The position numbers were made by a program, and so were the translations under genes. Below are positions 50,096 to 64,000 of a stretch of 64,000 bases of DNA, in pieces; the stretch's first letter is position 1, and each line of letters opens with the position of its first letter. Below the pieces are notes generated by a model that was not told the origin of the DNA, did not search any database, and saw only the letters and a program-made list of their open reading frames with translations. The DNA lies in contig NZ_RAWE01000023.1 of NCBI RefSeq assembly GCF_003611695.1, positions 1 to 64,000 of the forward strand, given 5' to 3'. Source of the DNA: Corallococcus carmarthensis (lineage in GTDB: Bacteria; Myxococcota; Myxococcia; Myxococcales; Myxococcaceae).

Positions 50096-51033
50096 GGGTG
50101 TTGATTCCAGGCATCTCCGGCGGCATCGCGCGCAGGCTGGCGCTGCGGCTGCGCGACAACGGCCATGAGGTCGCGGGCATCGACATCCGGCCGTGGCGGG
50201 ACGCGCCCAAGGACATCCAGGTGCACCCGGTGGACGTGCGCAAGCGCGCCGCCGAGGACGTCTTCCGCCGCTGGAAGCCGGAGGCGGTGGTGCACATGGC
50301 CACGGTGACGGCGTTCACCGTGCCCGGCGGCGAGCGCGGCCGCATCAACCTGGACGGAACCAAGGCGCTGTTCGACCACTGCGCGACGCACGGCGTGAAG
50401 CAGGTGCTCTTCGTGGGCCGGCACACGTTCTATGGCGCGGCGCCGGACTCGCCGCTGTACCACTCGGAGGACGAGCCCCCGCGCGCGCTGGAGGCCATCC
50501 CGGAGCTGGCGGACCTGGTGGCCGCGGACCTGTACGCGGCCACGGCGCTGTGGCGCATGCCGGAGGTCACCACCGCGGTGCTGCGGCTCGTCTACACGCT
50601 GGGCACGCCGGGCACGGGCACGCTCGCGAACCTCCTGCGCGGCAAGCGCGTGCCCATGGTGCTGGGTTACGACCCGCTCTTCCACGTGCTCCAGGAGGAG
50701 GACGTGGTGACGGCGCTGCAGCTGGCGCTGGAGAAGAAGGTGCGCGGCATCTTCAACGTCGCGGGGCCCGCGCCGGTGCCGCTGTCGGTCATCATCCGGG
50801 GCACGGGCCGCACGCCGGTGCCGCTGCCGTCACCGCTCTTCTCGGTGTTGATGGGGCGGGCGGGCTTCCCCCGCTTGTCGGTGGGCGCAACGGATCACCT
50901 GCGCTACCCCATCGTGGTGGACAACAAGCGCTTCCTGGAGGCCACGGGCTTCCAGTACACCTTCGACGAGGGCCGCATCCTGCGCGCCTACGCGGACGCG
51001 CTGCCGGTGGACCGGGCGGGTCATGGTGGCTGA
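50092..51033 (+). CDS. NAD-dependent epimerase/dehydratase-like SDR
   Basis: A 313-residue SDR: Gly-rich start VLIPGISGGIARRLALRL, acidic residue at the end of strand 2 (GIDIRPW) and VVHMATVTAF. The usual Tyr-x3-Lys is not obvious (the region reads ADLYAATALW), so it may be an atypical or non-catalytic member. Overlaps the acyltransferase gene by 4 bases and the MFS gene by 11. Operon position suggests lipid or envelope precursor metabolism. Confidence 0.85.
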   Translation: MRVLIPGISGGIARRLALRLRDNGHEVAGIDIRPWRDAPKDIQVHPVDVRKRAAEDVFRRWKPEAVVHMATVTAFTVPGGERGRINLDGTKALFDHCATHGVKQVLFVGRHTFYGAAPDSPLYHSEDEPPRALEAIPELADLVAADLYAATALWRMPEVTTAVLRLVYTLGTPGTGTLANLLRGKRVPMVLGYDPLFHVLQEEDVVTALQLALEKKVRGIFNVAGPAPVPLSVIIRGTGRTPVPLPSPLFSVLMGRAGFPRLSVGATDHLRYPIVVDNKRFLEATGFQYTFDEGRILRAYADALPVDRAGHGG

Positions 51034-52252
51034 CAGCGTCGGCGCGGCATCCGTGCCCACGCCGGGCCTGTTGCGCCGGGTGGAAGCGGTGGTGTTCCTC
51101 ACCGTGTTCCTGGACCTGGTGGGCTTCGGCATCGTCATCCCGATGCTGCCCTTCTACGTGCAGTCCATGGGCGGCTCGGCGCGCACGGTGGGCATCCTGC
51201 TGGGGTGTTTCAGTTTCACGCAGCTGCTCGCCACGCCGCTGCTCGGGCGGTACTCGGACCGGCACGGGCGGCGCGCGGTCATCCTGCTGAGCCTGCTGGC
51301 GAACGCGGTGGCGATGGCGCTGTTCGCGCTGGCCAGCCACCAGCGGATGCTGCCGTTGTTGTTCGCGTCCCGCATCCTGGCGGGGGCGACGTCCGGGAAC
51401 ATCGCCGCGTGTCAGGCGGCGCTCGCGGACGTGACGACGAAGGAGACGCGCGCGAAGGCCATGGGCCGCATTGGCGCGGGCATTGGCCTGGGCATGGTGC
51501 TGGGGCCCACGCTGGGCGGCCTGTTCTCCGGCCTGGGCCCGTGGGTGCCGCCGCTGCTCGCGGGAGGCCTGGCGCTGGTGGGCTTCGTGGGCGCGCTCCT
51601 GGCGATGCCGGAGACACACCCGGTGGAGAAGCGCGTGGCGGCGAAATCCCAGACGCGGTGGTCCGCGTTGCAGGACTCGCCCCGGCGCAAGGCGTTGGGA
51701 ATGGTGCTGGGGTTGTTCTTCGCGGTGTTCCTGGCCATGACCACGCTCCAGGTGGCGTTCGCGCTGCTGGTGCAGGCGCGGCTGGGCTGGGGCTCCAAGG
51801 AAGTGGGCTACACGTTCGCGGTGGTGGGCGGGCTGGGGATGGTCATCCAGGGCGGGCTGATTGGCCCGCTGTCGCGCGCGGCGGGTGAGTTCCGGTTGCT
51901 CATCTGCGGAGCCCTCCTCCTGGCCTGCGGCATGGCGGGGCTCGCGGTGTCGTGGCAGGCCCTTCCGATGATGGTCTCCGTGGTGCTGGTGGGCGTGGGG
52001 ACGGGCTTCCTCCAGCCGCTGATTTCGAGCCAGGCCTCGCAGGTCGCCTCGCCTTCGCAGCAGGGCGCCGTGCTGGGTCTGGCGCAGTCGTGCGGCGGAC
52101 TGGCCCGCACGGTCGGTCCGGTGGCGAGCGGCTGGATGTATGCGTCGTGGAGCACCCAGGCCCCCTTCCTGACGGGCATGGTTTCAGCGCTCGCGGCGGC
52201 GGGTTTGAGCGTGCTTCTCCATCGGGAAACAGCGGACGACGCGGAGCGGTAA
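51023..52252 (+). CDS. MFS transporter, DHA1/TetA-like
   Basis: A 409-residue 12-helix transporter with the DHA1 pattern: first helix LDLVGFGIVIPMLPFYVQSM, motif A LLGRYSDRHGRRAV between helices 2 and 3, and motif C GAGIGLGMVLGPTLGGLFSG in helix 5. It starts at ATG 51023 inside the end of the SDR gene. The resemblance to TetA-type exporters is general; no drug can be named. Last gene of the operon and followed by two hairpins. Confidence 0.9.
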   Translation: MVADSVGAASVPTPGLLRRVEAVVFLTVFLDLVGFGIVIPMLPFYVQSMGGSARTVGILLGCFSFTQLLATPLLGRYSDRHGRRAVILLSLLANAVAMALFALASHQRMLPLLFASRILAGATSGNIAACQAALADVTTKETRAKAMGRIGAGIGLGMVLGPTLGGLFSGLGPWVPPLLAGGLALVGFVGALLAMPETHPVEKRVAAKSQTRWSALQDSPRRKALGMVLGLFFAVFLAMTTLQVAFALLVQARLGWGSKEVGYTFAVVGGLGMVIQGGLIGPLSRAAGEFRLLICGALLLACGMAGLAVSWQALPMMVSVVLVGVGTGFLQPLISSQASQVASPSQQGAVLGLAQSCGGLARTVGPVASGWMYASWSTQAPFLTGMVSALAAAGLSVLLHRETADDAER

Positions 52253-52311: not shown

Positions 52312-52389
52312 CTTGTCTTCACCCGACCCGTGGGAGCAGTCTTTTGCTCACGAGGGGGCGGTGAAGCCATCACTCCCGGGGGGTAGGGC

Positions 52390-53607
52390 TTGCCATTGGC
52401 GGGTGAAGTCGCGCTGCTGGATGCGTTGGACCGTCAGGCCCGGCGCCGGGCGGAAGGCATCGCGACCCTGAGCGTGCTGGAGGGACCCGAGGCCCTGGGG
52501 GGGACGCTCTGGAGCCAGTGGGCCGCGAGGCACGGGCAGGCGGTGGTGGAGGTCTCCGGTGAGGACCCGAGGGCGGCGGCGCTGGACTGGGCCCGGGCGC
52601 TGGCAACGGCGCGGGACCTGGGGGAGGACGCGGAGGCGCTGGCGACGTTCAGCCTGACGGCGGCGAATCCCAGACACACGCCGGCGTTCCGCGGAAAGAC
52701 AGCGCATGAGCGGCGCGTGTTGCTGGACGCGCTGCCGCCGCCCTCGATGTTGCCGGAAGCCACGTGGGCGCTGTGCCGGGAGCTGGTGATTGGCAGGGAG
52801 GCGGTGGGGCCGGGCGCCCTGCCCCCCGCGGTGCACACGGCGTTCGCGAAGAACCTGGGCGCGGGGCTGCGCGCGCTGCACGCGCTGGTGCCGCCCGGAA
52901 AGGCGCCGGTGGTGCGGGTGCCCGCGGGGGTGGCGCCGGCGTTCCGGGGGCTCCAGGTGGCGGGCGTGTTGAGCAGCGCGGTGCCGGCGCTCGCGGTGGC
53001 GTGCGGGGTGTCCAGCGAGGCGTTGGCGGCGTTCCTGGCGGGTGGGGAGACGCGGCTGAAAGCGCTGGTGCGCGAGGGCGTGCTGGCGGTGCCCGTGGAG
53101 CCCTCCGAGACCGCGAGCGCGGTGGCGACGCTCCGGAAGCTGGAGCGCACGGGCGCGACGGAGGCGCAGCGGGTGAGCGCCGCCGAGGTGGCGCTGGCGG
53201 TGCTGACGGGCGCGGGCGAGGCGGGCGCGGACCGGGCGCGAAGCAAGGCGGAGGCATACCTGCGCGACCGGCTGGAGGAGCACCCGGGCACGGCGGGCCT
53301 CTTCGCGCTCAACGTCCGGCTGCACCCCGAGGACAAGCGCTCCTGGGAGGTGGACCTGCTGTGCCGCTCGCTGCGCATCGCGGTGGAGATCGACGGCTAC
53401 CACCACTTCCAGGATCCGGAGCGGTTCCGCCGCGACCGGCGCAAGGACCTGGACCTGCAGCGCGAGGGCTACTGGGTGTACCGGCTGCTCGCGACGGACG
53501 TGCTGTCCCAGTTGGAGCACATCCTCCACACCCTCGACACGTTGATTGAAGCCCGCGGGCGCGAGCCTGACGGGCGGGAGCCACGACATGGACACCGACA
53601 CTCCTGA
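52390..53607 (+). CDS. DUF559-type (PD-(D/E)XK) nuclease, first gene of candidate defence operon
   Basis: A 405-residue protein. The N-terminal 285 residues are helical and Ala-rich with no recognised domain. Residues of about 295-395 are a DUF559/Vsr-like nuclease: KAEAYLRDRLEE, then WEVDLLCRSLRIAVEIDGYHH with Asp322, Glu333 and Asp335 in the places of the D...ExD catalytic set, and a closing EGYWVYRLLATDVL strand-helix. The start is TTG 52390 (a second TTG at 52396); GGGGGG stands upstream. The following gene starts 20 bases before this stop. The nuclease call is good; the N-terminal part may bind a partner or target. Confidence 0.85.
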   Translation: MPLAGEVALLDALDRQARRRAEGIATLSVLEGPEALGGTLWSQWAARHGQAVVEVSGEDPRAAALDWARALATARDLGEDAEALATFSLTAANPRHTPAFRGKTAHERRVLLDALPPPSMLPEATWALCRELVIGREAVGPGALPPAVHTAFAKNLGAGLRALHALVPPGKAPVVRVPAGVAPAFRGLQVAGVLSSAVPALAVACGVSSEALAAFLAGGETRLKALVREGVLAVPVEPSETASAVATLRKLERTGATEAQRVSAAEVALAVLTGAGEAGADRARSKAEAYLRDRLEEHPGTAGLFALNVRLHPEDKRSWEVDLLCRSLRIAVEIDGYHHFQDPERFRRDRRKDLDLQREGYWVYRLLATDVLSQLEHILHTLDTLIEARGREPDGREPRHGHRHS

Positions 53608-54610
53608 CACCCGACTCCAGGGCCTGGCCCTGGCATGGCTGGCGACGCGCTCGGAGAAGAAGGCCGGCACGCGCAATGAGCTGGCGAAGACGCTGCACGC
53701 CTTCGTGGAGCACCGCTGGAGCCGGGGTGAATGGACCGGACGGTTCGACGCGCTGCTGACGGGACTGCTGGACGGCAAGCTCGTGGAGGCCCGGGGCCGT
53801 TCGGGGCTGGCGCTGACGGGGCCGGGCCGTCAACAGGCGCTGAAGTTCCTGCGGGTGGACTCGCCCAAGGGGCTCACGTGGAAGCGCGTGAAGCAGCAGC
53901 ACCTGCTGGCGAAGGGCCTGGGCCTGCCGGGCACCAAGCCCGCGCTGGGGCGGTTATCGGACGCGGACGGCGTGCGGGCGCTGGTGCTCAAGCGGGCGCA
54001 CAAGGTGGACGGGCCGGAGACGCCGACGCTGGCGCAGGTGCGCGACCGGCTGTTGTGGCGGCAGCTGGGCGTGGAGACGGACGAGGCGTTCTCGCTGCGC
54101 GCGGTACAGGCGCACCTGCTGGGCAAATTGCTGAAGCAGGAGGTCAGCGATCCGAAGCGCGGCGTGGAGCAGCTGGCCGCCCGCGCGGTGGGAGCGTCGC
54201 GGGTGGACGCGGAGGTGGTGCGGATGGCGGCGCTGCGGGAATGGGTGCTGGCGGGGGCGGACAAGGCGCCCCCACCCGGACAGAAGCCCCCGGAGGCTCC
54301 CCTGAAGTCAGAACCCAAGGTGCCATCCGCGGACACGGCGTCTTTCGCCCAGCGGGTGCTGGACGCGGCCGGGGCCGTGCCCCCCACGGGCCGCTTCGGT
54401 GACAACAAGGTCTTCATCTCCCACGTGTGGAAGGCGTTGCAGCCGGAGTGGTCTGACCGCCCGGCGTTCAACGAGGCGCTGCTCGCGGCCAACCGCGCGC
54501 ATTACCTGTCACTGGGCCGGGCGGACCTGCTGGCGGCCATGAACTCCCGCGACATCACCGAATCCGAAGTGCGCACCGTCGGCGCCAGCTTCCATTTCGT
54601 CGTCCTCTAA
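53588..54610 (+). CDS. unknown protein with C-terminal winged-helix-like domain, second gene of candidate defence operon
   Basis: A 340-residue cytoplasmic protein. N-terminal 200 residues are helical (GTRNELAKTLHAFVEHRWSR) with several short winged-helix-like segments; a Pro-rich linker (about 230-255) leads to a C-terminal module with KVFISHVWKAL, LSLGRADLLAAMN and SEVRTVGASFHFVVL. I recall similar endings in uncharacterised proteins next to AAA ATPase genes, but cannot name a family. ATG 53588 has CGGGAG 7 bases upstream; the gene overlaps the nuclease gene by 20 bases and ends 27 bases before the ATPase gene. Perhaps an adaptor or DNA-binding specificity subunit. Confidence 0.8.
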   Translation: MDTDTPDTRLQGLALAWLATRSEKKAGTRNELAKTLHAFVEHRWSRGEWTGRFDALLTGLLDGKLVEARGRSGLALTGPGRQQALKFLRVDSPKGLTWKRVKQQHLLAKGLGLPGTKPALGRLSDADGVRALVLKRAHKVDGPETPTLAQVRDRLLWRQLGVETDEAFSLRAVQAHLLGKLLKQEVSDPKRGVEQLAARAVGASRVDAEVVRMAALREWVLAGADKAPPPGQKPPEAPLKSEPKVPSADTASFAQRVLDAAGAVPPTGRFGDNKVFISHVWKALQPEWSDRPAFNEALLAANRAHYLSLGRADLLAAMNSRDITESEVRTVGASFHFVVL

Positions 54611-54637
54611 GCGGAACCCCTTCTCAGGAGCCTCCCC

Positions 54638-57600
54638 ATGTCCAAAGACGCCCGGCTGCAAGCGTTCCTGTCCGATGGCCCCGAGATCTTCAACAGCGTC
54701 CAGCAGGGCCAGACGCTGTGGAAGCGGGATCCGTTCGACGTGCCGTCCATCAATGCACCCGCGCGCGCGGCGTTCGAGCGGCTCGTGAAGCGCGCCACCG
54801 CGCAGACGCCTCCGGAGGACGGAAGGATCCTTCTGCTGAAAGGGGACTCCGGCAGCGGCAAGACGCATCTGGTGCGGGCCTTCCGCAACAGCGTGCACGA
54901 GAGCGGCAAGGGCTACGTCGGCTATCTGCCCATGACCGTTGATGTGACGCACTACGACCGATACATCCTGTCGGAAGTCATCGACTCGCTGGAGAAGCCG
55001 TACGACCACGGCCACGTCGACGACACGGGGCTGATGCTGCTGTCCGAGGCCGTGCTCAAGCGCTGCAAGAACATCTTCGCGGCCCACATCCCGGACGAAG
55101 ACGTGCTGGACGACGAGTCGCTGCACGGCAACATCCGCGCCGTCGCGGACGACCTGCACGCGGATCCCGAGTTCCGGAACATCGACGTCAACCTGCTGCG
55201 CGCCCTGCTCTGCCTCCAGCGCCGCGAGGCCCGCTTCCACCACCGCATCGTCCAATGGCTGCGCTGCGAGGAGATGTCGCCCGAGGACCGGGCCATCATC
55301 GGGAACCTGGTCCCGCGAAGCACCGAGGAGTCCCCCAGCCGGATGCTCATCCAGCTGGGCCAGCTCATGGGCATCTTCGGCAAGGCGCTGGTCCTCTGCG
55401 TCGACCAGGTGGAGGACATGCTCGACTTCGAGCAGAAGCCCCAGATGGAGCCTTCCTTCCGCCGCGCGATGAGCACGCTGGTCGCGCTGGCGGCCCAGGT
55501 GCCCTCGGCCATCGTGGTGGTCTGCTGCCTCTCCGACTTCTGGACGGCGACGCGCACGAGGATCAACCGCGCGATGATCGACCGCATCGAGCGAAATCCC
55601 GAGCCCGTGGACCTGGAGCTCAACGTCACCGCGCAGACGGCGCGGGACATCGCGGCCCGCCGGCTGAAGTCCCTGTACGAACAGAAGGGGATCGCATTCA
55701 ACCCGGCCCAGCCCACCTACCCCATTCCGGCCCAGGGCTTCGAGCTGCTGAGCGGCCAGCGGACGCGCGACATCCTGAACGCCTGCCACCGCTACCGGGA
55801 ACAGGCCATCCAGGACGGCAAGCTGCCGGCGGCGTTCCCCCTGCCGGACAAGCAGCAGCTCCCCGCCAAGGGAGTCACCGTCTCTCCCCAGACACCCCCA
55901 GCGCCGGACCTGGATCAGGCCTGGACGGACTTCAAGGCCAACTTCAAGGCAAGGGTGCCGGAAGGGGACTCGGACATCACCGCGTTGCTCGCCTGGAGCA
56001 TCAAGGCGAGCGCGGAGGAGCTGGGCGACGCGGCCCGGTTCAAGGTGAAAGCCCACGATGAGGGGGACTCGCTCGACGTCACGGTCCAGCCCGGCGACGC
56101 ACAACTTCATGTCGCGCTCTGCAACAACACACCCAAGGGAGGCTCCCTGGGCAAACAGATGACCCAAGCCCTCAGGAACGCGGCCAAGAAGCTGCCGGTC
56201 CTGGTGCGCACCACGGACTTTCCCGGCACCCTGGGCACCCTGGTGGAGGAACAGACCACCCTGCTGCGGCGCAGGGGTGGACGGCGCGCGGTGGTGGGGC
56301 CCAGCGACCTGCGGGAGCTGCTCGCGTTGCAGGCCTTCCGCAAGCAGCAGGTGGAGTCCACGTTCCTCGGATGGAGCCGCGTGGCCCGTCCGGTGACGAG
56401 GCTCCAGGGCATCACGGACCTGCTGGCCCTGGAGAAGTCCGCCCCCGTCGCCATCACGCCTCCTGCGCCCATGGGGAGCAAGCCCGGCGCCGTGAAGGAG
56501 TCCGTCGTGTCCGACGGCGAGTCCGAATGGGAGGTGACGCCGGCCAGCCAGATCCTCCCGGTCAAGCCGGATAGATCAACCGCCTCCGCCAGCAAGTCGA
56601 AGGAGGACAGCCCCAAGGGCCAGATGCGCGTGGGCGTCTCAGAGGGCGTCTTCGCCAACACCGTGCATGTCCAGGCGAATGAGCTGACCCAGCACAGTGC
56701 CTTCCTCGGCGGTCCCGGCAGCGGCAAGACGACGCTCGCGCTGAACCTGGTCGAGCAGCTGTTGCTCCAAGGCATCCCCGCCATCCTCGTGGACCGCAAG
56801 GGCGACCTCGCCGCGTACGCGCGCGAGGAGTCGTGGGGGGAGGAACTGTCCAACCCGATGATGCTCGAGCGCCGCAAGCTGCTGCGTGAGCATGTGGATG
56901 TGGCGCTCTACACGCCGGGCCGTTCGGACGGACGCCCGCTGTCGATTCCAGTGGTGCCCCGAGGACTCGACAAGCTCCCGCCCGAGGAGCGTGACCAGAT
57001 CCTCCAGCAGGCGGCGGACGCCCTCTCCACCATGCTGGAGTACAAGAGCAGCCAGAGGGACAGGGCCGCGAAGGCCCTGCTGGCCCTGGCGCTGCGGCTG
57101 CTGGTGCAGCGTCCGTCCGGCAAGGAGATCACCCTGGACCTCATCCAGCGCTTCGTCGCCGCGCAGGACATGACGCTCGTCCAGGAGGCGCATGGGCTGG
57201 ATGACAAGGTCTTCACCAAGCTGGCGCAGGACCTGGCGACGCTGCGGCTCAACGCGCAGTCCCTGCTCTCCAACACCGGGGAGAAGCTCGACATGAACGA
57301 GCTGCTGGGACTGGGCGCCGCGAAGGTGCCGGGCAAGACGCGGCTCACCATCATCAGCACCAAGTTCCTGGGCGGACTGCACAGCTCGCTGTTCTGGGTG
57401 TCACAGCTCCTGGTGGAGGCCAACCGCTGGGCCAGCCAGCACCCGTCGCCGAAGCTCCAGGCGGTGCTCCTCTTCGACGAGGCGGACATCTACCTGCCCG
57501 CGGTGGGCATCCCCGCCACGAAGCAGCCCATGGAGAACCTGCTCCGGCGCGCGCGCTCGGCCGGCGTCGGGGTGATGCTCGCGACGCAGAGCCCAGGCGA

Positions 57601-57883
57601 CCTCGACTACAAGTGCCGCGACAACGTGCGCGCCTGGTTCGCGGGCCGCGTGAAGGAGGAGACGGCGCTCCGGAAGCTCAAGCCGATGTTCGCGGAGGCC
57701 CGTGTGGACGCATCGGTCCGCCTCCCTGCCCAGAAGACGGGCCAGTTCCACGTCCTGCGCGAAGGCCAGGTGGAACAGCTCAAGGCGGACCGGAACATCA
57801 TCAAGACGGAGCAGTTGTCGGAGGAGGAGATCCTCCAGCTGGCACACCGCTCCGGTGAGCAGGGCATCCGCAACGCGGGGTGA
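54638..57883 (+). CDS. double-ATPase with HerA-type C-terminal module, third gene of candidate defence operon
   Basis: A 1081-residue cytoplasmic protein. Residues 1-400 are an AAA/STAND-like P-loop module: Walker A GDSGSGKTH (69-77) and Walker B LVLCVDQVED (Asp256), followed by a lid-like helical region. Residues of about 420-600 include a small domain with VRTTDFPGTLGTLVEEQTTL. Residues 640-1081 are a HerA/FtsK-type (DUF87-like) translocase: FLGGPGSGKTTLALNLVEQL with Walker A Lys697, ILVDRKGDL, Walker B AVLLFDEAD (Asp947, Glu948) and a sensor-like MLATQSPGDLDYK. HerA ATPases act as hexamers that move DNA for a nuclease. AGGAG precedes the ATG. The co-encoded DUF559 protein is the likely nuclease partner. 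Confidence 0.9.
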   Translation: MSKDARLQAFLSDGPEIFNSVQQGQTLWKRDPFDVPSINAPARAAFERLVKRATAQTPPEDGRILLLKGDSGSGKTHLVRAFRNSVHESGKGYVGYLPMTVDVTHYDRYILSEVIDSLEKPYDHGHVDDTGLMLLSEAVLKRCKNIFAAHIPDEDVLDDESLHGNIRAVADDLHADPEFRNIDVNLLRALLCLQRREARFHHRIVQWLRCEEMSPEDRAIIGNLVPRSTEESPSRMLIQLGQLMGIFGKALVLCVDQVEDMLDFEQKPQMEPSFRRAMSTLVALAAQVPSAIVVVCCLSDFWTATRTRINRAMIDRIERNPEPVDLELNVTAQTARDIAARRLKSLYEQKGIAFNPAQPTYPIPAQGFELLSGQRTRDILNACHRYREQAIQDGKLPAAFPLPDKQQLPAKGVTVSPQTPPAPDLDQAWTDFKANFKARVPEGDSDITALLAWSIKASAEELGDAARFKVKAHDEGDSLDVTVQPGDAQLHVALCNNTPKGGSLGKQMTQALRNAAKKLPVLVRTTDFPGTLGTLVEEQTTLLRRRGGRRAVVGPSDLRELLALQAFRKQQVESTFLGWSRVARPVTRLQGITDLLALEKSAPVAITPPAPMGSKPGAVKESVVSDGESEWEVTPASQILPVKPDRSTASASKSKEDSPKGQMRVGVSEGVFANTVHVQANELTQHSAFLGGPGSGKTTLALNLVEQLLLQGIPAILVDRKGDLAAYAREESWGEELSNPMMLERRKLLREHVDVALYTPGRSDGRPLSIPVVPRGLDKLPPEERDQILQQAADALSTMLEYKSSQRDRAAKALLALALRLLVQRPSGKEITLDLIQRFVAAQDMTLVQEAHGLDDKVFTKLAQDLATLRLNAQSLLSNTGEKLDMNELLGLGAAKVPGKTRLTIISTKFLGGLHSSLFWVSQLLVEANRWASQHPSPKLQAVLLFDEADIYLPAVGIPATKQPMENLLRRARSAGVGVMLATQSPGDLDYKCRDNVRAWFAGRVKEETALRKLKPMFAEARVDASVRLPAQKTGQFHVLREGQVEQLKADRNIIKTEQLSEEEILQLAHRSGEQGIRNAG

Positions 57884-58174
57884 GCCCGGTCTGGGGTCCA
57901 GGATGGGAGCCATGCAGGCCCGGGTGGACTCACGGCCGTGGACATGGCTCCTGAAGCAACCTCGACTTCGAGGCTGCGCGGATGACCACTGGCGGACCGA
58001 ACGTGCTCCGCCCGGCACTCCCCGCGAGTGCTGAGGTCAATTCCAGTCACCGGGCACGGTCCCGGGTCGGCTGGACGGTGAAAGGGCAGGAGTTCATACC
58101 TCCCCCTTGAGGATTCTTCGACCGTCCAACCTCGGGACAGCCATCTGTCCCCACCCGACAAGCCCGGGGACTCA
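57884..58174. other. 291-base intergenic stretch with no recognised feature
   Basis: Separates the ATPase gene from the giant protein gene. Short frames exist on both strands but none has coding-like bias. It presumably contains the promoter of the next gene; no clear elements were found. Confidence 0.5.
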
Positions 58175-61100
58175 ATGTCTTCTCTCCAGAGGATGTTCAC
58201 CTATGCAGGTGACGCACAGAGCGCGCCTCAGAAGAACATCCTCATCGAGTTCAGGCTCCCCGTCTTCGAGTACCAGAACATCGAAACCCCGGAGGGGAAC
58301 GGGATCGTCCGAAACGTCATCGACATCGGCGTGCTCACCGTTCCCCTGGCGCTCCATTCAAAGGAATATCACCTCACCCTGGATGATGGGTTCATCACCG
58401 GGAGCGGCGAAGGCCCCTTCGACCGCTTCACGCGGTACGTCTGGCAGACGAGAGAGCGACACAACCTCGAGGAGCTGAGCGTCGGCGTGGCGGTGCGGTA
58501 CCTGTCCAATGACGGCAAGAAGCTCGGCGAGGACTCACTCGAGTTCATCTACCACCCGAAACTCGAAGCCGATGAGCGGTGGGAGGGCCCCGGGTTCCCC
58601 CAGATCTCCTTCGAGAAGGTCTTCATCGCGGTCAACAAGGCCGCCTTCGCCAGGATGGAACGCCGGATGCCCCCCGGCGTCGACCTGGGGCACATCAGCC
58701 TGATGGACGTGATCTCCATCCTGACGGACCTGACAGGCGCGGAGCCTGCCTTCGATGACAAGGTTTCGGACGAAACGAAGCGGCGTCTGTTCGGCGCCTC
58801 AGGGGATGCCGCGGACCGGGCCCTGGAATTCATCAAGCAGAACTTCCAGTCCCTCTATGACTTCCCCTTGAAGCTCGCCGAGCTCAAGACGCTGGTCATC
58901 GCGGGCACGCTCACCAGCGTCAGCTCCGACGGCTCCGATGCGACCCGCCTGGACTTCCTGCTGTACGACCTGTCCGTGGAGTTCTCCGAGGCGGACACCT
59001 CCCGCACGAAGGTCCTCCATGCCCCGTTCGGAGAGGACCTGCGCATCCAGCAGAACGCGGCGCCCTTCTCTTTCCAGGAGGCCCGGCAGGTCCTCTTCGA
59101 CAATGCCGTTGGCCCCGTCCAGGTCACGGTGAAGGGCTTCGATGGTTCGCTGCTGTGGTCCAAAGAGTTCGCGGCCGACGACCCGGAGCTCACGAGGCTC
59201 GACATCAAGGTCCCCCGGCAGCGGCCGAGCCGGTTGACCCCGAAGGACCTGGAGCCCGTCCCCGACAAGAAGAAGCGGCTGCGGGGCCAGGTGATCGAGC
59301 TCACCCGGAAGTGTCCCCTCAAGGACCTGACGGTGCTGGTCCAGGCCAAGGGCGCTGACGATGCCGCCTGGCGAATCGTGGGTGCCGCGACGACCGACGC
59401 CTCTGGCAACTTCTCCATGCCGTATCCCTTCGGCATCTTCACGCAGGCCCAGGCCCTGGTGTCGGCCAGACCCGACGAGCCGGCAACCCTCGCGGTCACG
59501 GACGTCAGGGACGGAAACCAGACGCTGGCGGATGACTTCCTGTACCTGCTGGTCAAGGAGCTCCAATGCCCTCACGCGGGCACGAAGGAGGCGTGCGACT
59601 GCCAGGCGAAGAAGCAGGCCGCACGGCTTCCAGACCAGGCGGACCTGATTGAATCCGACGAGTACTCCCAGGACATCGGAGGGGCTTGCATCAACCTGTC
59701 CACGCCCAACCGGACCCTGAGTGAGTACAGCTATCAGGCCATCGTGCGGACCTCCGATCCGGACGTGGCGAACTACACCCTGAAGCGAGTCGAAGTCCCC
59801 CAGCCCGCCGCCCCCCATGTCTTCTCCGACATCACTCACGGCGTATCCGCGCTGGAAGTCGCGCTCAACAGCCCGGCGCTCCGGGCGCTCTTCGCCCAGC
59901 CAGTCTTGGATGACGTGTGGGCCCAGCTCAAGGCACTGGGAGGGGTGCGCGCGGATGCATCCCCCATCGACCTGACGGCCACGCTGGGGAACGCCGATAC
60001 CCTCCTCCGCCTGATCAACATCGTTCCGCCCCAGGACGTGGCGATGGCCGCCGTGCTGAGAGTCCTCGTGGAGGGTGCCCGGGAAGTGGAGGAGTTGCTG
60101 AGGGACGCGCTGCGGCCTCGCACCGAAACACGTTATGAGCTTGAAGGCGGCGCCCGGAAACGGCTCCGCAAGCCCATTGACCTGGACAATCCCGTCGCCT
60201 GGCAAGATGACCCCGAGGGCAGCCGGAATCCCTCCCTGTATCAGGCCGTCTCCATCGCGACCGGGCATCTGCTGCATTACAAGTCCGTCTTCAAGGCGGA
60301 CGGCTACTCCCTGGGGGATCTGCTCTATTCGCTGCCGCTGGCCCCCGGACAGAAGAAGGAGATCGTCGTCTTCGACGCCTCCCACACGCTATCAGGCGCC
60401 GAGTCCCAGGCGCTGACCCAGGGCGAAAGACTCGCCTCCGACCTCGTGAACGAGAGGGTCATCGCCAGCCAGCTGGCCGGAAGCATCCGGGAGGCCGTAC
60501 GCGCCAGCAGCTCCGCCAATACGAGTGGCATCAGCGCGGGTTTTGGCACGGGCGGTTCCGGCGCGGGGGGCGCCGGCGCGTTCAGCGGCTCGGGCAGCGC
60601 GGTCCTGGGCGTCGCGGGGGGCGTCGCCAACGCCAACGCCAACGCCGCGCAGGACAGCACCCGGGATGTGTCCCAGTTCTTCAATGAAAAGCTGCGCCAG
60701 TCCATCATGCAGAACGCGGAGAGCTACCGGCAGCTCACCGCGTCGGTGATCACCACGGTGCAGGAAGGACAGCGGTACGCGGTCACCAGCGAGGTCGTGG
60801 CCAATCACAACCATTGCCACGCCCTGACCATGATGTACTTCGAAGTCCTCCGCCACTTCGCGATCTTCCAGGAGCTGTCCGCCGTCGAGGAGTGCGTGTT
60901 CGTTCCGCTCCTGATGACCCACTTCACGACCCAGAACATCTTCAAATGGCGGGACGTCCTGGCGTCCCATCTGTTGCCCATGCCGTCGGAAACCTACCTG
61001 CAGCCCTACAGCGCCTTGTCAGGCCCCGTGCGGATGCATCCCCTGCTGAAGGCCTTCGACGCCAACGAACGCATCAAGACGGACTACGCCAACGTGGATT

Positions 61101-63907
61101 TTCCGCGAGGCGCCTACGACGATGAGCCCATCCGGTTCATCAAGGGGGACATGCGGCTCAGGGTGGAGCTGCCGCGTCCCAGGACGCGCTTTGATCGCAT
61201 CATGTCGCTGCCTGTCACCACCCAGACCATCACGACCCGGGAAATCGATCCGCTGGCAACGACAGCCGCCGCGCTCGACTTCCCGCGCAAGATGGCCGAG
61301 TACGCCGCCAAGGCCGCCGCGACGGCGGGACTCCTGCCCCTGTTCGAGCGTCCTCCCGTCCCGCCGGGCATCCAATACAGCACCACCCAGCACGAGATGC
61401 TGGTCCGCGAGGCGATCTTCGACAGCTTCATGAAGCTGGACGCCAACTACCAGAGCGTTCCTCCAGCACAGTGCATCCGGATCACCCATTTCAGTCCGCC
61501 CGCGAAGATCTCCGCCGGACCGCTTGGAACCATCACCCCGACAGCGGCCTCGGTCCTGGACTTCTTCGCGGAGAACGAGGCGGACAAGCAGCAGTGGTCC
61601 CTCTACGCGGCCCTGCTGGGCTATTCGGACGTCTTGAGCCTGCTCAACGCGTACTTCAAGGGCAACCTCATCTCGGAATGGGATGCGATCTTCAACAATG
61701 ACATCGCCCCGCTCCTCTTCGAGAAGCTCGTCGCGAACATCGGGGTTTCGGACATCGCTACCGACTTCTCCAGCAGGTCGAAGTACAAGGGTGGCGAGCG
61801 GCTGATGATGCTGAGCCTGAGCGGCACCACATCCCGCAAGAGGAGCCAACTGCCTCAGCACCTGCGCATGGCCGTGAACAACGCCACCCTCAAGGCGCTC
61901 CAGCCCCATGTCACGCTCACCATCGAAGGCCTGACGCTCACGTACTCGACGGCGCACTACGACGGGATGCTGTTCAGCGGCTCCATCAACGACGACCTGC
62001 TGGATGACACCCTCCTCTTCATCCCGGAGAACGCGGACGAAAAGAGGAACCCGCGCAAGGATGATGCCTATCTCGTCCACAAGCTGATCGAGCACCTGAA
62101 CAGCAACCTGGAGCATTACAACAAGGCGCTCTGGTACAGCCTGGATCCCGACCGGCGCTACATGCTGCTGGACGGCTTCCACATGCAGATCTTCGATGGG
62201 GCCGGCAATCCCGCGGGCTTCCGGAGCCTGGCATCGGTGGTCAAGAACGAGCTCATCACCATCACCGGCAACTCCCTGGTCTTCCCGGTGGCCGCTGGCT
62301 ACAAGGTCAGCCAATCCTATATCACGGAGGAAAGGCTGAACCCGGAGGCTCCCCCGGAACGGGCCACGCTGTTCGACCACTACAAGCCTCTGACGCCCGT
62401 CCAGCCCTACCGCATCAGCGTTCCTTCCAAGGGCGTGTTCGCCGAAGCGATCCAGGGCGCATGCAACGCCTGCGAGAAGATCGAAACGGAGCGCCTGCAG
62501 GACTGGACCCGGCTTCCGAACACGGATGAGCCCACGCCCATCCTTCCGGTCACCCCGCCCACCCCTTCGGTCACGGACTGGAAGGCGGTGTTCAAGGACT
62601 TCGCCACGCCCCTCGTCAGCATCCAGAACGCGCCAGCGGCTCCCCAGCCGGGCGCGGGCCTGGCCGGATTGTCCGAGCTGCTCGGAAAGAGTGGCGTGTT
62701 CAAGGACATCACCGGACTGGAGGGCACGCAGCAGAACGTCATGAAGACGTATCTGTCGAACCAGGAGAACGCCAAGGCCTTCGCCGAAATGGCCAAGGAC
62801 ATGGCCATCCAGGCTCACAATACGCACAACGCAGGCAAGATCATGGATGCGCTCAAGGGCGCAAAGGACTCCGGCGCGCTGAGCGAGGATGACTACAACA
62901 AGCTCGTGAAGGAGCACCTGCAACAGCAGATCGATGGCGGAGCGACCCAGAAGAACGAGCTCGCCAAGGAGAACCAAGCCATCCCGTCCCCGTTGACCCA
63001 GGCCGCGGTCGACGCCGCGGGCAAGGGCAAGGACGTCAGGGCCCAGGCCACGGCCCCCTCGGGCAGCTCGGAGTCCGTGGACATCAAGGCGCCGCAGATC
63101 ACGACCATCGCGAACGTGGCCGAAGCCGAGTACTGGCGCGACCTCATCACGTTCCTTCCCGGTCCGGAGCTCACGGCGGGAATCGAGGCGCGCAACCTCG
63201 CGGTCCAGAAGCTCACCGACGGCTACGGCGACGTCAATCTGGACTGGTTCCAGGTGGACATCACGAAGCTCCCGAATCGCCCGGGGACCACGACACCGTT
63301 CGATGACGCGGGACTCTTCGAATACTTGCGAAAGAACTTCGCGGACTTCCTGCAGCCGTATCCCCGCACCGGCAAGCCGCGTTCGCTGGAGACCTATGAA
63401 GCCGTGGACGCCGCTTCGTGGGCAAGCGCGACGCCGCTTGGCTCGGTGTTGTTGTTCACCATCGACGCCAACCCGCTACCTGCCCTGGCAGGCTTTGTCG
63501 TGCCCCTGGCAGCGGCCCCTGTCCCCGAATTGGGCCTCGTGCTGTGCTCGGAATACGTGAGTGAGCCAGGCCAGGATCACCACTGGAACTTCACGACGTT
63601 GAAGGGCCCCAACCCGATTCGCTACCACCCGGTCTCCGGGACCCGCCAGTTCGGCCTGGGCCGGAAGAAGGACCACTGGACCTTCTACGTTCGCGCGGCC
63701 GACCGCACGTCCACCCTCTTTGACTATGGAGGCAGCCCGCTCGTGTTCAGCGGCGCCGACGAATATTGGGATTACCTTCAGACGCAGCTCATCGGCTTCG
63801 TCGAAAGCAACGGCGGTGCCGCGAAGCGGGGCCTGGTATCGAGCAAGCGCTACGACTGGCGGGGAGTCAACAACCGGTTTTTCGGTGGAGGTCCGATCAC
63901 CGCCTGA
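58175..63907 (+). CDS. giant protein of unknown function (1910 residues)
   Basis: No signal peptide. Residues 1-370 are a beta-rich region; about 370-455 form a carboxypeptidase-regulatory/Ig-like domain (LRGQVIELTRKCPLKDLTVL, ATTDASGNFSMPY); a Cys cluster follows (QCPHAGTKEACDC). Around 700-745 is YSLGDLLYSLPLAPGQKKEI, then a Gly/Ala/Ser-rich loop (780-830) inside a helical region, and at about 875 a conserved-looking NHNHCHALTMMYFEVLRHF. A CxxC (CNACEK) precedes a helical part, and the last 300 residues form a beta-rich domain ending in YDWRGVNNRFFGGG. Third-position G/C bias is weaker than in most neighbours, suggesting acquisition. Family not recognised; large secreted or structural effector proteins are one possibility. 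Confidence 0.85.
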   Translation: MSSLQRMFTYAGDAQSAPQKNILIEFRLPVFEYQNIETPEGNGIVRNVIDIGVLTVPLALHSKEYHLTLDDGFITGSGEGPFDRFTRYVWQTRERHNLEELSVGVAVRYLSNDGKKLGEDSLEFIYHPKLEADERWEGPGFPQISFEKVFIAVNKAAFARMERRMPPGVDLGHISLMDVISILTDLTGAEPAFDDKVSDETKRRLFGASGDAADRALEFIKQNFQSLYDFPLKLAELKTLVIAGTLTSVSSDGSDATRLDFLLYDLSVEFSEADTSRTKVLHAPFGEDLRIQQNAAPFSFQEARQVLFDNAVGPVQVTVKGFDGSLLWSKEFAADDPELTRLDIKVPRQRPSRLTPKDLEPVPDKKKRLRGQVIELTRKCPLKDLTVLVQAKGADDAAWRIVGAATTDASGNFSMPYPFGIFTQAQALVSARPDEPATLAVTDVRDGNQTLADDFLYLLVKELQCPHAGTKEACDCQAKKQAARLPDQADLIESDEYSQDIGGACINLSTPNRTLSEYSYQAIVRTSDPDVANYTLKRVEVPQPAAPHVFSDITHGVSALEVALNSPALRALFAQPVLDDVWAQLKALGGVRADASPIDLTATLGNADTLLRLINIVPPQDVAMAAVLRVLVEGAREVEELLRDALRPRTETRYELEGGARKRLRKPIDLDNPVAWQDDPEGSRNPSLYQAVSIATGHLLHYKSVFKADGYSLGDLLYSLPLAPGQKKEIVVFDASHTLSGAESQALTQGERLASDLVNERVIASQLAGSIREAVRASSSANTSGISAGFGTGGSGAGGAGAFSGSGSAVLGVAGGVANANANAAQDSTRDVSQFFNEKLRQSIMQNAESYRQLTASVITTVQEGQRYAVTSEVVANHNHCHALTMMYFEVLRHFAIFQELSAVEECVFVPLLMTHFTTQNIFKWRDVLASHLLPMPSETYLQPYSALSGPVRMHPLLKAFDANERIKTDYANVDFPRGAYDDEPIRFIKGDMRLRVELPRPRTRFDRIMSLPVTTQTITTREIDPLATTAAALDFPRKMAEYAAKAAATAGLLPLFERPPVPPGIQYSTTQHEMLVREAIFDSFMKLDANYQSVPPAQCIRITHFSPPAKISAGPLGTITPTAASVLDFFAENEADKQQWSLYAALLGYSDVLSLLNAYFKGNLISEWDAIFNNDIAPLLFEKLVANIGVSDIATDFSSRSKYKGGERLMMLSLSGTTSRKRSQLPQHLRMAVNNATLKALQPHVTLTIEGLTLTYSTAHYDGMLFSGSINDDLLDDTLLFIPENADEKRNPRKDDAYLVHKLIEHLNSNLEHYNKALWYSLDPDRRYMLLDGFHMQIFDGAGNPAGFRSLASVVKNELITITGNSLVFPVAAGYKVSQSYITEERLNPEAPPERATLFDHYKPLTPVQPYRISVPSKGVFAEAIQGACNACEKIETERLQDWTRLPNTDEPTPILPVTPPTPSVTDWKAVFKDFATPLVSIQNAPAAPQPGAGLAGLSELLGKSGVFKDITGLEGTQQNVMKTYLSNQENAKAFAEMAKDMAIQAHNTHNAGKIMDALKGAKDSGALSEDDYNKLVKEHLQQQIDGGATQKNELAKENQAIPSPLTQAAVDAAGKGKDVRAQATAPSGSSESVDIKAPQITTIANVAEAEYWRDLITFLPGPELTAGIEARNLAVQKLTDGYGDVNLDWFQVDITKLPNRPGTTTPFDDAGLFEYLRKNFADFLQPYPRTGKPRSLETYEAVDAASWASATPLGSVLLFTIDANPLPALAGFVVPLAAAPVPELGLVLCSEYVSEPGQDHHWNFTTLKGPNPIRYHPVSGTRQFGLGRKKDHWTFYVRAADRTSTLFDYGGSPLVFSGADEYWDYLQTQLIGFVESNGGAAKRGLVSSKRYDWRGVNNRFFGGGPITA

Positions 63908-64000
63908 TGCCCGCGGGAGGCAGCAGGTAGGCGTCGTCTACGGGCGAACAGGGAGGCGCCTCCCATCCATCTTCCGGGTCGGCCCCCGGGCGGGGAGTCG
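63897..64000 (-). CDS. possible C-terminal end of a convergent gene cut by the window edge
   Basis: On the minus strand a frame is open from the window edge to TGA at 63897 and translates to a natural-looking tail (PGADPEDGWEAPPCSPVDDA then YLLPPAGIRR). It would overlap the giant protein gene by 11 bases. Too short to identify. Confidence 0.35.
   Translation of the reverse strand, partial: TPRPGADPEDGWEAPPCSPVDDAYLLPPAGIRR

What the first reader, a model, noticed from the sequence alone, without database searches (positions are those of the whole stretch)
52390..57883. Candidate undescribed three-gene defence system: DUF559 nuclease, unknown adaptor, double-ATPase HerA protein
Seen: three same-strand genes packed with a 20-base overlap and a 27-base gap, bounded upstream by tandem terminators; gene 1 ends in a PD-(D/E)XK-type DUF559 domain (Asp322, Glu333, Asp335), gene 3 has two P-loops, the second in a HerA/FtsK-type module. 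Known: HerA-family ATPases pair with NurA, SIR2 or DUF4297 effectors in DNA repair and anti-phage systems. Inference: here DUF559 is the effector nuclease, gene 2 a specificity or adaptor subunit, and the trio a defence or plasmid-exclusion system that I do not recognise among named ones.
Basis: partly seen in the sequence, partly recalled or inferred. Interest (0 to 1): 0.82.

Follow-up and report, generated by a model that had tools for sequence, protein, structure and literature searches.

The report
Three-gene nuclease–ATPase DNA conflict system
Three neighbouring genes, kept together in distantly related bacteria, encode a DNA-cutting protein, a DNA-binding-type protein and a DNA-pumping motor, and their sharply different exchangeable versions in related species suggest an uncharacterised defence or rival-recognition machine.

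Summary
The core observation holds: three same-strand genes with a 20-base overlap and a 27-base gap, a gene-1 nuclease domain and two gene-3 P-loops. The 'tandem terminators' are not above chance. The window is Corallococcus-like (inferred). Gene 2 is in 61 of 63 genomes of seven genera of the family. The full trio also occurs in Planctomycetota; in Actinomycetota and a Methylobacterium plasmid, genes 1 and 3 flank a short unmatched gene. Gene 1 models as a P-loop-dead AAA+ domain (Orc/Cdc6/TnsC-like) plus a Vsr/DUF559 nuclease. Gene 2 has an N-terminal winged helix. Gene 3 is an active AAA+, an unidentified middle region and HerA. New here: in Corallococcus the nuclease domain, gene 2 and gene 3 form deeply diverged alleles at one chromosomal site. 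The main split has 559 fixed differences in 4,806 nt and 0 in the 2,962 nt upstream, with a sharp edge inside gene 1. That fits a conflict system better than housekeeping. In some relatives the gene 2–gene 3 pair lacks gene 1 and sits beside YcaO–TfuA or caspase genes. It works like the published 'HerA/FtsK capture' systems; membership is only partly tested. No defence island surrounds the window copy and no phenotype is known.

The parts
52390..53607 (+). Gene 1, 405 aa: residues ~1-238 predicted degenerate AAA+ domain (Orc/Cdc6/TnsC/MuB-like, P-loop lysine lost); residues ~281-391 PD-(D/E)XK nuclease of DUF559/Vsr type (D322, E333, D335)
53588..54610 (+). Gene 2, 340 aa (start ATG 53588): N-terminal winged-helix domain, helical middle, conserved C-terminal ~95 aa domain that also occurs in proteins of viral contigs
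   Evidence: no Pfam, NCBIfam, PADLOC or PHROG family for the window protein at E up to 1
54638..57883 (+). Gene 3, 1081 aa: AAA+ ATPase (about 1-420, K75, DQVE 256-259), middle region of unknown fold (424-612), length-variable linker (613-665), HerA/FtsK ATPase (666-1074, K697, DE 947-948)
   Evidence: domain limits are mine
53075..57880 (+). Divergent allele cassette: gene-1 nuclease domain, gene 2 and gene 3; left edge inside gene 1 at about 53075-53100 (codon ~230); right edge lies between the end of gene 3 and the PAS-kinase-like gene
51023..52252 (+). MFS transporter, conserved upstream flank in the own genus; used as divergence control
58175..63907 (+). 1910-aa ORF without a clear family, an insertion of this genome between gene 3 and a PAS-kinase-like gene that follows gene 3 in relatives; not part of the system

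Best explanation
A DNA-targeting conflict (defence) system working like the HerA/FtsK capture systems. Gene 2 binds DNA through its winged helix and supplies target choice. The active AAA+ of gene 3 and the ATP-dead AAA+ of gene 1 assemble on that DNA in an Orc/TnsC-like mixed complex. The HerA half of gene 3 pumps the DNA and presents it to the Vsr-type nuclease of gene 1, which cuts it. Shown: gene order and conservation across phyla, intact nuclease and two intact ATPase sites, loss of the gene-1 P-loop lysine, predicted folds of genes 1 and 2, and sharply divergent alleles at a fixed site in Corallococcus. Inferred: complex formation, DNA binding, pumping and cutting, that the target is invading DNA, and how own DNA is spared (none of the three genes is a DNA-modifying enzyme by family search).
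For: Gene order 1-2-3, all full-length, in 32 of 35 fetched loci of the family and in 27 of 51 loci of a second search; of the other 24, many are cut by contig ends or reading-frame breaks and others lack gene 1 (the two sets share genomes). In Methylobacterium, Tsukamurella and Nonomuraea, gene 1 and gene 3 relatives flank a short gene in the same order. Nuclease residues are invariant and the fold matches DUF559, I-Bth0305I and Vsr (Z 13.3, 12.2, 10.8). Gene 1 residues 1-238 match Cdc6 (Z 11.1), TnsC (10.7), ORC (10.3), MuB (10.0) and RdrA of RADAR (9.7); 51 of 52 gene-1 rows lack GK. All 24 gene-3 rows match PADLOC mad8 and two HerA models. Allele cassette: 559 fixed differences against 0 for that split in the flank. 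In some relatives the pair sits beside YcaO-TfuA or caspase/bDLD3 genes. A VapBC pair and a DEAD helicase flank the Tsukamurella copy.
Against: No defence island around the window copy or obvious in the planctomycete flanks read by eye. Gene 2 is nearly fixed in one clade (61 of 63 genomes), unlike most mobile defence genes (recalled). In the Myxococcus group the excess divergence is weaker: mean dS 0.78/0.73/0.62 for genes 1/2/3 against 0.46-0.68 for four neighbours. Eleven loci with more than 5.9 kb upstream have gene 2 and gene 3 without gene 1, and three gene 3 proteins end before HerA, so neither nuclease nor pump is indispensable everywhere. The middle region of gene 3 matched no nuclease, and gene 3's AAA part was not matched to an Orc structure. 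The gene-1 model has 405 residues, where the aligner warns of weak single-domain matches, and other AAA+ proteins (HslU, ClpX) score 8.6-9.3. No phenotype is known.
Confidence: 0.55

Rival explanations
1. A conflict system directed at siblings or at the own infected cell rather than at free invader DNA: the gene 2-gene 3 pair is a sensor-switch that fires variable effectors (nuclease here; peptide-modifying or caspase/death-domain proteins elsewhere).
For: Gene 1 absent with YcaO-TfuA upstream in Polyangium and Minicystis (families searched for L115; L093 and L111 read by eye); caspase or EAD5-like/caspase/bDLD3 neighbours in L113 and L116 (both EAD5 matches are below the cut-off); shared alleles between species; near-fixation in genera that include Corallococcus, Myxococcus and Archangium relatives. 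Conflict systems enriched in multicellular prokaryotes are described in PMC7159879 (passages).
Against: Adjacency is not proof of joint function; the nuclease is kept in most complete loci; relatives also occur in Tsukamurella and Methylobacterium, which are not fruiting bacteria (recalled).
Confidence: 0.2
2. Housekeeping DNA-end processing or genome maintenance, by analogy with HerA-NurA: the ATPase feeds chromosomal ends to the nuclease.
For: HerA with a nuclease is a repair theme (recalled); near-fixation in one clade; purifying selection, dN/dS 0.21-0.45 in nine comparisons (three genes, three relatives).
Against: Gene 2 not found in 19 of 26 genera of the family; deep alleles at one site with a sharp edge; gene 1 absent in 11 loci.
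Confidence: 0.15
3. Remnant or tool of a mobile element (plasmid partition, conjugation or domesticated transposon) with no immune role.
For: TnsC/MuB-like fold of gene 1; gene-2 C-terminal domain in viral-contig proteins; copies on Methylobacterium and Xanthobacter plasmids.
Against: No relative of gene 3 in the phage records and none of its AAA half in viral contigs; none of the three conserved genes is a transposase or relaxase; fixed chromosomal position in the own and two other genera.
Confidence: 0.08

Closest known systems
HerA/FtsK capture systems with an Orc/CDC6 AAA+ ATPase (PMC10853773, Nucleic Acids Res. 2024; section 22 read, passages)
   Same: Parts list: Orc/CDC6-type AAA+, active nuclease, HerA/FtsK translocase, winged-helix gene, combined in one or more polypeptides.
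   Different: Here the active nuclease is fused to a second, P-loop-dead AAA+ domain and is of DUF559/Vsr type; AAA+ and HerA are fused; no inactive nuclease domain could be shown in gene 3. Word searches of the main text found neither DUF559, Vsr, Planctomyc-, deltaproteobact- nor myxo-; its supplements could not be read.
MADS (PADLOC mad models)
   Same: All 24 gene-3 proteins match the mad8 model, best E 5e-28; the window match covers positions 27-295 of 314.
   Different: Only the HerA half matches in the rows shown; mad3 matches in the rows shown are P-loop only; the window's genes 1 and 2 match no mad model. Further contents of MADS are recalled; its paper was not among the listings.
DndFGH (DptFGH) restriction module
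   Same: HerA/FtsK ATPase, nuclease and winged-helix subunit in a three-gene module (passages).
   Different: DndH of ~1700 aa carries nuclease and HerA together; only weak DndH matches here (best E 2.7e-4).
HerA-SIR2, HerA-DUF4297 and HerA-NurA pairs (recalled)
   Same: HerA motor with an effector nuclease or enzyme.
   Different: Pairs without AAA+ or winged-helix subunits (recalled); for the window gene 3 the PADLOC HerA matches are weaker than mad8.
Vsr / I-Bth0305I / DUF559 nucleases
   Same: Predicted fold of gene 1 residues 281-391 (Z 10.8-13.3); profile matches to 3hrl and 3r3p.
   Different: Here the domain is fused to a pseudo-AAA+ domain and encoded with an ATPase.

Membership tests
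HerA/FtsK capture system (PMC10853773) | HerA/FtsK translocase | tested here: met
   HerA_C and DUF87 in 24 of 24 gene-3 rows; PADLOC HerA models in 24 of 24
HerA/FtsK capture system (PMC10853773) | Orc/CDC6-family AAA+ ATPase | tested here: inconclusive
   Gene 1 residues 1-238 model like Cdc6 (1fnn Z 11.1, rmsd 3.8, 158 aligned), tied with TnsC 10.7 and ORC 10.3, but this copy lacks the P-loop lysine. Gene 3 residues 1-420 match AAA_16/AAA_22; not modelled, and no Orc chain was listed by profile
HerA/FtsK capture system (PMC10853773) | Inactive nuclease domain inserted after the AAA+ core | tested here: inconclusive
   Gene 3 residues 424-612 matched no nuclease by profile and not gene 1's nuclease; not modelled
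HerA/FtsK capture system (PMC10853773) | Active nuclease in the operon | tested here: met
   DUF559/Vsr domain with invariant D322, E333, D335; activity itself and whether it is one of the paper's two families were not tested
HerA/FtsK capture system (PMC10853773) | Winged-helix domain in the operon | tested here: met
   Gene 2 N-terminus (rows span residues 1-135): Z 10.3 to a Hel308 segment (76 aligned, rmsd 2.0), about 9-10 to MarR/PadR/DtxR-type proteins and MukF; weak DtxR profile match, E 0.0096. That gene 2 has several such domains is not shown
HerA/FtsK capture system (PMC10853773) | Restricts invading DNA | not testable with these tools
   Needs phage and plasmid assays
MADS | mad8 ATPase | tested here: met
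   24 of 24 rows, best E 5e-28
MADS | Other mad proteins encoded with it | tested here: not met
   No mad model matched the window's genes 1 and 2 or the two gene-1 and three gene-2 relatives scanned. One unidentified ORF of 38 upstream window ORFs matched mad2 at 5.9e-13; it is not one of the three conserved genes
DndFGH | ~1700-aa DndH carrying nuclease and HerA in one chain | tested here: not met
   Nuclease is on gene 1, HerA on gene 3; DndH matches cover HerA positions only
DUF559 family (PF04480) | Score above Pfam's cut-off | tested here: met
   29.1 bits against 20.6

The most novel reading that the evidence does not exclude
An unnamed multi-phylum self/non-self DNA system in which the nuclease rides on an ATP-dead Orc/Cdc6-like subunit that pairs with an active Orc-like AAA+-HerA fusion, and in which nuclease, DNA-binding subunit and motor are exchanged between Corallococcus species as one of at least two old, co-adapted alleles, as expected if the two alleles recognise different targets or each other.
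Probability: 0.35. Interest if true: 0.78.

Novelty: new variant of a known kind. Interest (0 to 1): 0.62.

Why it matters
It is a compact unit, found complete in at least two phyla and in a related form in Actinomycetota and Alphaproteobacteria, whose genes 1 and 2 have no significant match in the 2023 defence library. A probably ATP-dead Orc-like subunit carries the nuclease. Corallococcus offers a clean natural experiment: different alleles of the same machine in otherwise similar neighbourhoods, so domain swaps could show which part chooses the target. It also points to an unnamed domain shared with viral-contig proteins, and to YcaO-TfuA peptide-modification genes next to the same gene pair.

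Tried and rejected
Mobile-island reading: rejected for the window. Flanking genes (acyltransferase, epimerase, MFS upstream; a PAS-kinase-like, a pabC-like and other genes downstream, the downstream names read by eye) are conserved in relatives.

'Broken' gene 1 in L034-L036, flagged, was an artefact of matches in a second frame; the frames are open.

Fold of gene 3's middle region: no profile match to solved chains above noise (best E 0.023, to designed proteins) and none to gene 1's nuclease. Gene 1's AAA-like part against gene 3's AAA part by profile gave probability 4.5% only, and gene 2's N-terminal and C-terminal domains did not match each other. Foldseek had no match at E <= 0.001 for gene 2 or gene 1; the fold claims rest on VIA-align 2, which barely tested gene 2 residues 136-340. 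PHROG labels on the HerA half of gene 3 include 'terminase large subunit' (E 1.8e-16); I read this as a shared pumping-ATPase fold.

Phage origin: no gene-3 relative in phage records at E 1e-5 or, for its AAA half, in viral contigs. Plasmids: 4 records, of which Nonomuraea (11.85 Mb) and Tsukamurella (ribosomal genes) look like chromosomes labelled as plasmids. Searches with the Tsukamurella and Methylobacterium gene 3 found only those two and Nonomuraea.

Literature: searches listed no paper that I could recognise as being on a DUF559-HerA trio. The library is open-access only, and supplements were not readable.

Selection made before counts: A1 held the window plus 20 of the 32 loci with gene 1; A2 and A3 the window plus 23 of 35 loci each; A4 the window plus all 48 gene-2 rows passing the length filter; A5 the window plus 31 of 32 gene-1 rows (L071 dropped, ORF call 1813 aa); A6 the window plus 23 of 39 gene-3 rows; A7 dropped L072 and A8 dropped L072 and L107 from A6. 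A9 held 38 of 42 called ORFs outside 52380-64000 (four short ones left out). L110 and L117, with partial matches only, are not counted among the gene-1-less loci. Allele groups A and B were named after seeing gene 3; therefore tested all 35 four-four splits. L037 (group C) was left out of those splits and is a mosaic. The PAS-kinase row of L032 is partial, and its L032-L037 value (identity 0.32) is an outlier kept in the mean.
Full report
What is there. Three genes lie on the + strand at 52390-53607, 53588-54610 and 54638-57883. The window belongs to a 10.8-Mb assembly. The claimed upstream tandem terminators are not above chance.

The proteins. Gene 1 has DUF559 at its end (E 9.3e-7). In 32 rows D322, E333, D335 and most of the following RRDRRKD stretch are invariant, and H339 nearly so. 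Its AlphaFold2 model (mean pLDDT 88) matches DUF559, I-Bth0305I and Vsr nucleases at residues 281-391 (Z 13.3, rmsd 2.0, 94 aligned; Z 12.2; Z 10.8). Residues 1-238 match Cdc6 (Z 11.1, rmsd 3.8, 158 aligned), TnsC (10.7), ORC (10.3), MuB (10.0) and RdrA of RADAR (9.7); HslU and ClpX follow at 8.6-9.3. The P-loop is degenerate: 51 of 52 gene-1 rows (46 distinct segments) have no GK; only L099 has GLGKKT. Gene 2 (mean pLDDT 92) has an N-terminal winged helix: Z about 9-10 to MarR, PadR, DtxR-like and MukF structures, 10.3 to a Hel308 segment; only residues 1-135 were well tested. Its window sequence matches no family in four libraries. Gene 3 has AAA_16/AAA_22 and HerA_C/DUF87 in 24 of 24 rows, with both Walker A lysines invariant. 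The HerA half matches PADLOC mad8 in 24 of 24.

Conservation. In the same family gene 2 was found in 61 of 96 genomes and 7 of 26 genera, including 16 of 16 genomes of the own genus. The phylum search found it in 65 of 195 genomes. Of 35 fetched loci, 32 have genes 1-2-3 full-length and 3 (L054-L056) have genes 2-3 without gene 1; those three genomes carry a full trio elsewhere. A collection-wide search with gene 2 gave 51 loci: 27 have all three genes full-length. Of the rest, many are cut by contig ends or reading-frame breaks, others lack gene 1, and L110 and L117 match in part. The two sets overlap in genomes. Full trios include Planctomycetota (Singulisphaera L094, Tautonia L090). A distant group in Tsukamurella, Nonomuraea and Methylobacterium has a nuclease gene (E 3e-23 to 5e-16), a short gene and an AAA-HerA gene (E 1e-71 to 1e-73) in the same order. 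The short gene does not match gene 2 significantly (best E 0.14) and the gene-1 AAA part is not convincingly matched. Their gene 3 proteins are 38-47% identical to each other over the aligned parts. Sequence distances of the three genes agree across 14 loci (Mantel r 0.93-0.94, p 0.0005); shared ancestry alone would also give that.

An allele cassette. I compared 9 loci of the own genus (window, L032-L037, L156, L157), one genome per species by the collection's description. Five flanking genes have mean dS 0.13-0.20 and the PAS-kinase-like gene 0.26; genes 1, 2 and 3 have 0.29, 0.45 and 0.59. Pairs fall into group A (window, L032, L033, L156), group B (L034, L035, L036, L157) and L037. Along the alignment, A-B divergence equals within-group divergence up to about 53,075 and then jumps from 0.11 to 0.31. 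The A/B split has 0 fixed differences in 2,962 nt upstream and 559 in 4,806 nt of cassette. Among all 35 four-four splits, the best flank split has 15 and a different grouping; the second-best cassette split has 4. By domain, A-B identity is 0.85 for the gene-1 AAA-like part (within groups 0.88 and 0.84), 0.65 for the nuclease (0.93 and 0.90), 0.57 for gene-3 AAA (0.91 and 0.93), 0.53 for the middle (0.77 and 0.92) and 0.78 for HerA (0.90 and 0.95). So the nuclease domain travels with genes 2 and 3 while the gene-1 N-terminus does not. L037 is a mosaic: its nuclease is nearer A, its gene-2 end and gene-3 AAA and HerA nearer B. Old alleles at one site, grouped otherwise than the flanks, are what conflict and recognition loci show and are unexpected for housekeeping (general knowledge). 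Against this, eight Myxococcus-group loci show a weaker excess: dS 0.78, 0.73, 0.62 for genes 1-3 against 0.46, 0.46, 0.55 and 0.68 for four neighbours.

Other contexts. Eleven loci with more than 5.9 kb upstream carry genes 2-3 without gene 1 (L054-L056, L093, L095, L098, L105, L111, L113, L115, L116). In Polyangium L115 the upstream genes are YcaO and TfuA, the latter two bases from gene 2, and downstream is a WD40 protein whose start carries a P-loop (read by eye). L111 and L093 look alike (by eye). L113 has a RING-type and a caspase gene upstream, and L116 a caspase-bDLD3 protein downstream; both have a sub-threshold EAD5 match downstream. Three gene-3 proteins (L098, L105, L111) end before HerA. 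So the gene 2-AAA pair is the more constant core. In L160 the trio sits with VapBC and a DEAD helicase between rplN and rpsQ. The window's own surroundings are not a defence island.

Mechanism and filing. The parts list resembles the 'HerA/FtsK capture' theme of PMC10853773: Orc/CDC6 AAA+, inactive nuclease, active nuclease, HerA/FtsK, winged helix (section 22 read). PMC12839542 extends that theme to BREX-related operons (passages). By analogy, gene 2 and the AAA+ domains find the target, HerA pumps DNA, and the nuclease cuts. I file it as working like that kind and as a probable variant, not as a proven member, because the Orc identity of gene 3's AAA and the inactive nuclease insert are inconclusive. 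Distinctive points are the nuclease on a pseudo-AAA+ subunit, the AAA+-HerA fusion and the allele cassette. My searches listed no paper on it (passages seen), within an open-access library and without supplements.

Score. A specialist would find the unit credible and the allele pattern interesting. The theme is published and no phenotype exists, hence 0.62.

Noticed in passing
window 53588-54610 (gene 2 residues ~245-340) and L127-L154: The gene-2 C-terminal ~100-aa domain (RADLV..M...SE...FHF) recurs, one to three copies, in proteins of 28 viral contigs, for example after SNF2 helicase and ADP-ribosyltransferase domains (L139) or with LPD38 (L143). In the ten such proteins scanned no Pfam match was listed over it.
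   Followed up: partly
window 58175-63907: 1910-aa ORF of lower G+C with no convincing family in four libraries, inserted between gene 3 and the PAS-kinase-like gene; absent from the 8 other loci of the genus compared.
   Followed up: partly
L115:4928-15028, L111, L093: YcaO-TfuA (thioamidation-type) genes directly upstream of gene 2-gene 3 in Polyangium and Minicystis, with an NTPase-like gene downstream (L111 and L093 by eye).
   Followed up: partly
L098, L105, L111: Gene 3 relatives that end after the middle region and lack the HerA half.
   Followed up: partly
L160:1522-10560: Trio with VapBC and a DEAD helicase inserted between ribosomal protein genes rplN and rpsQ; the record is labelled a plasmid but carries ribosomal genes.
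   Followed up: no
L080: Record labelled Comamonas sp. KCTC 72670 carries a myxobacterial-type trio and a flanking epimerase like the window's; probably mislabelled.
   Followed up: no
L159:5269-8478: Xanthobacter conjugative plasmid pXAUT01 carries gene 2 and the first half of gene 3 next to an insertion-sequence gene.
   Followed up: no
window 65-52252: One ORF each matches PADLOC mad2 (5.9e-13), MTase_II (3.3e-7) and TRIP13 (7e-4); which ORFs was not resolved.
   Followed up: no
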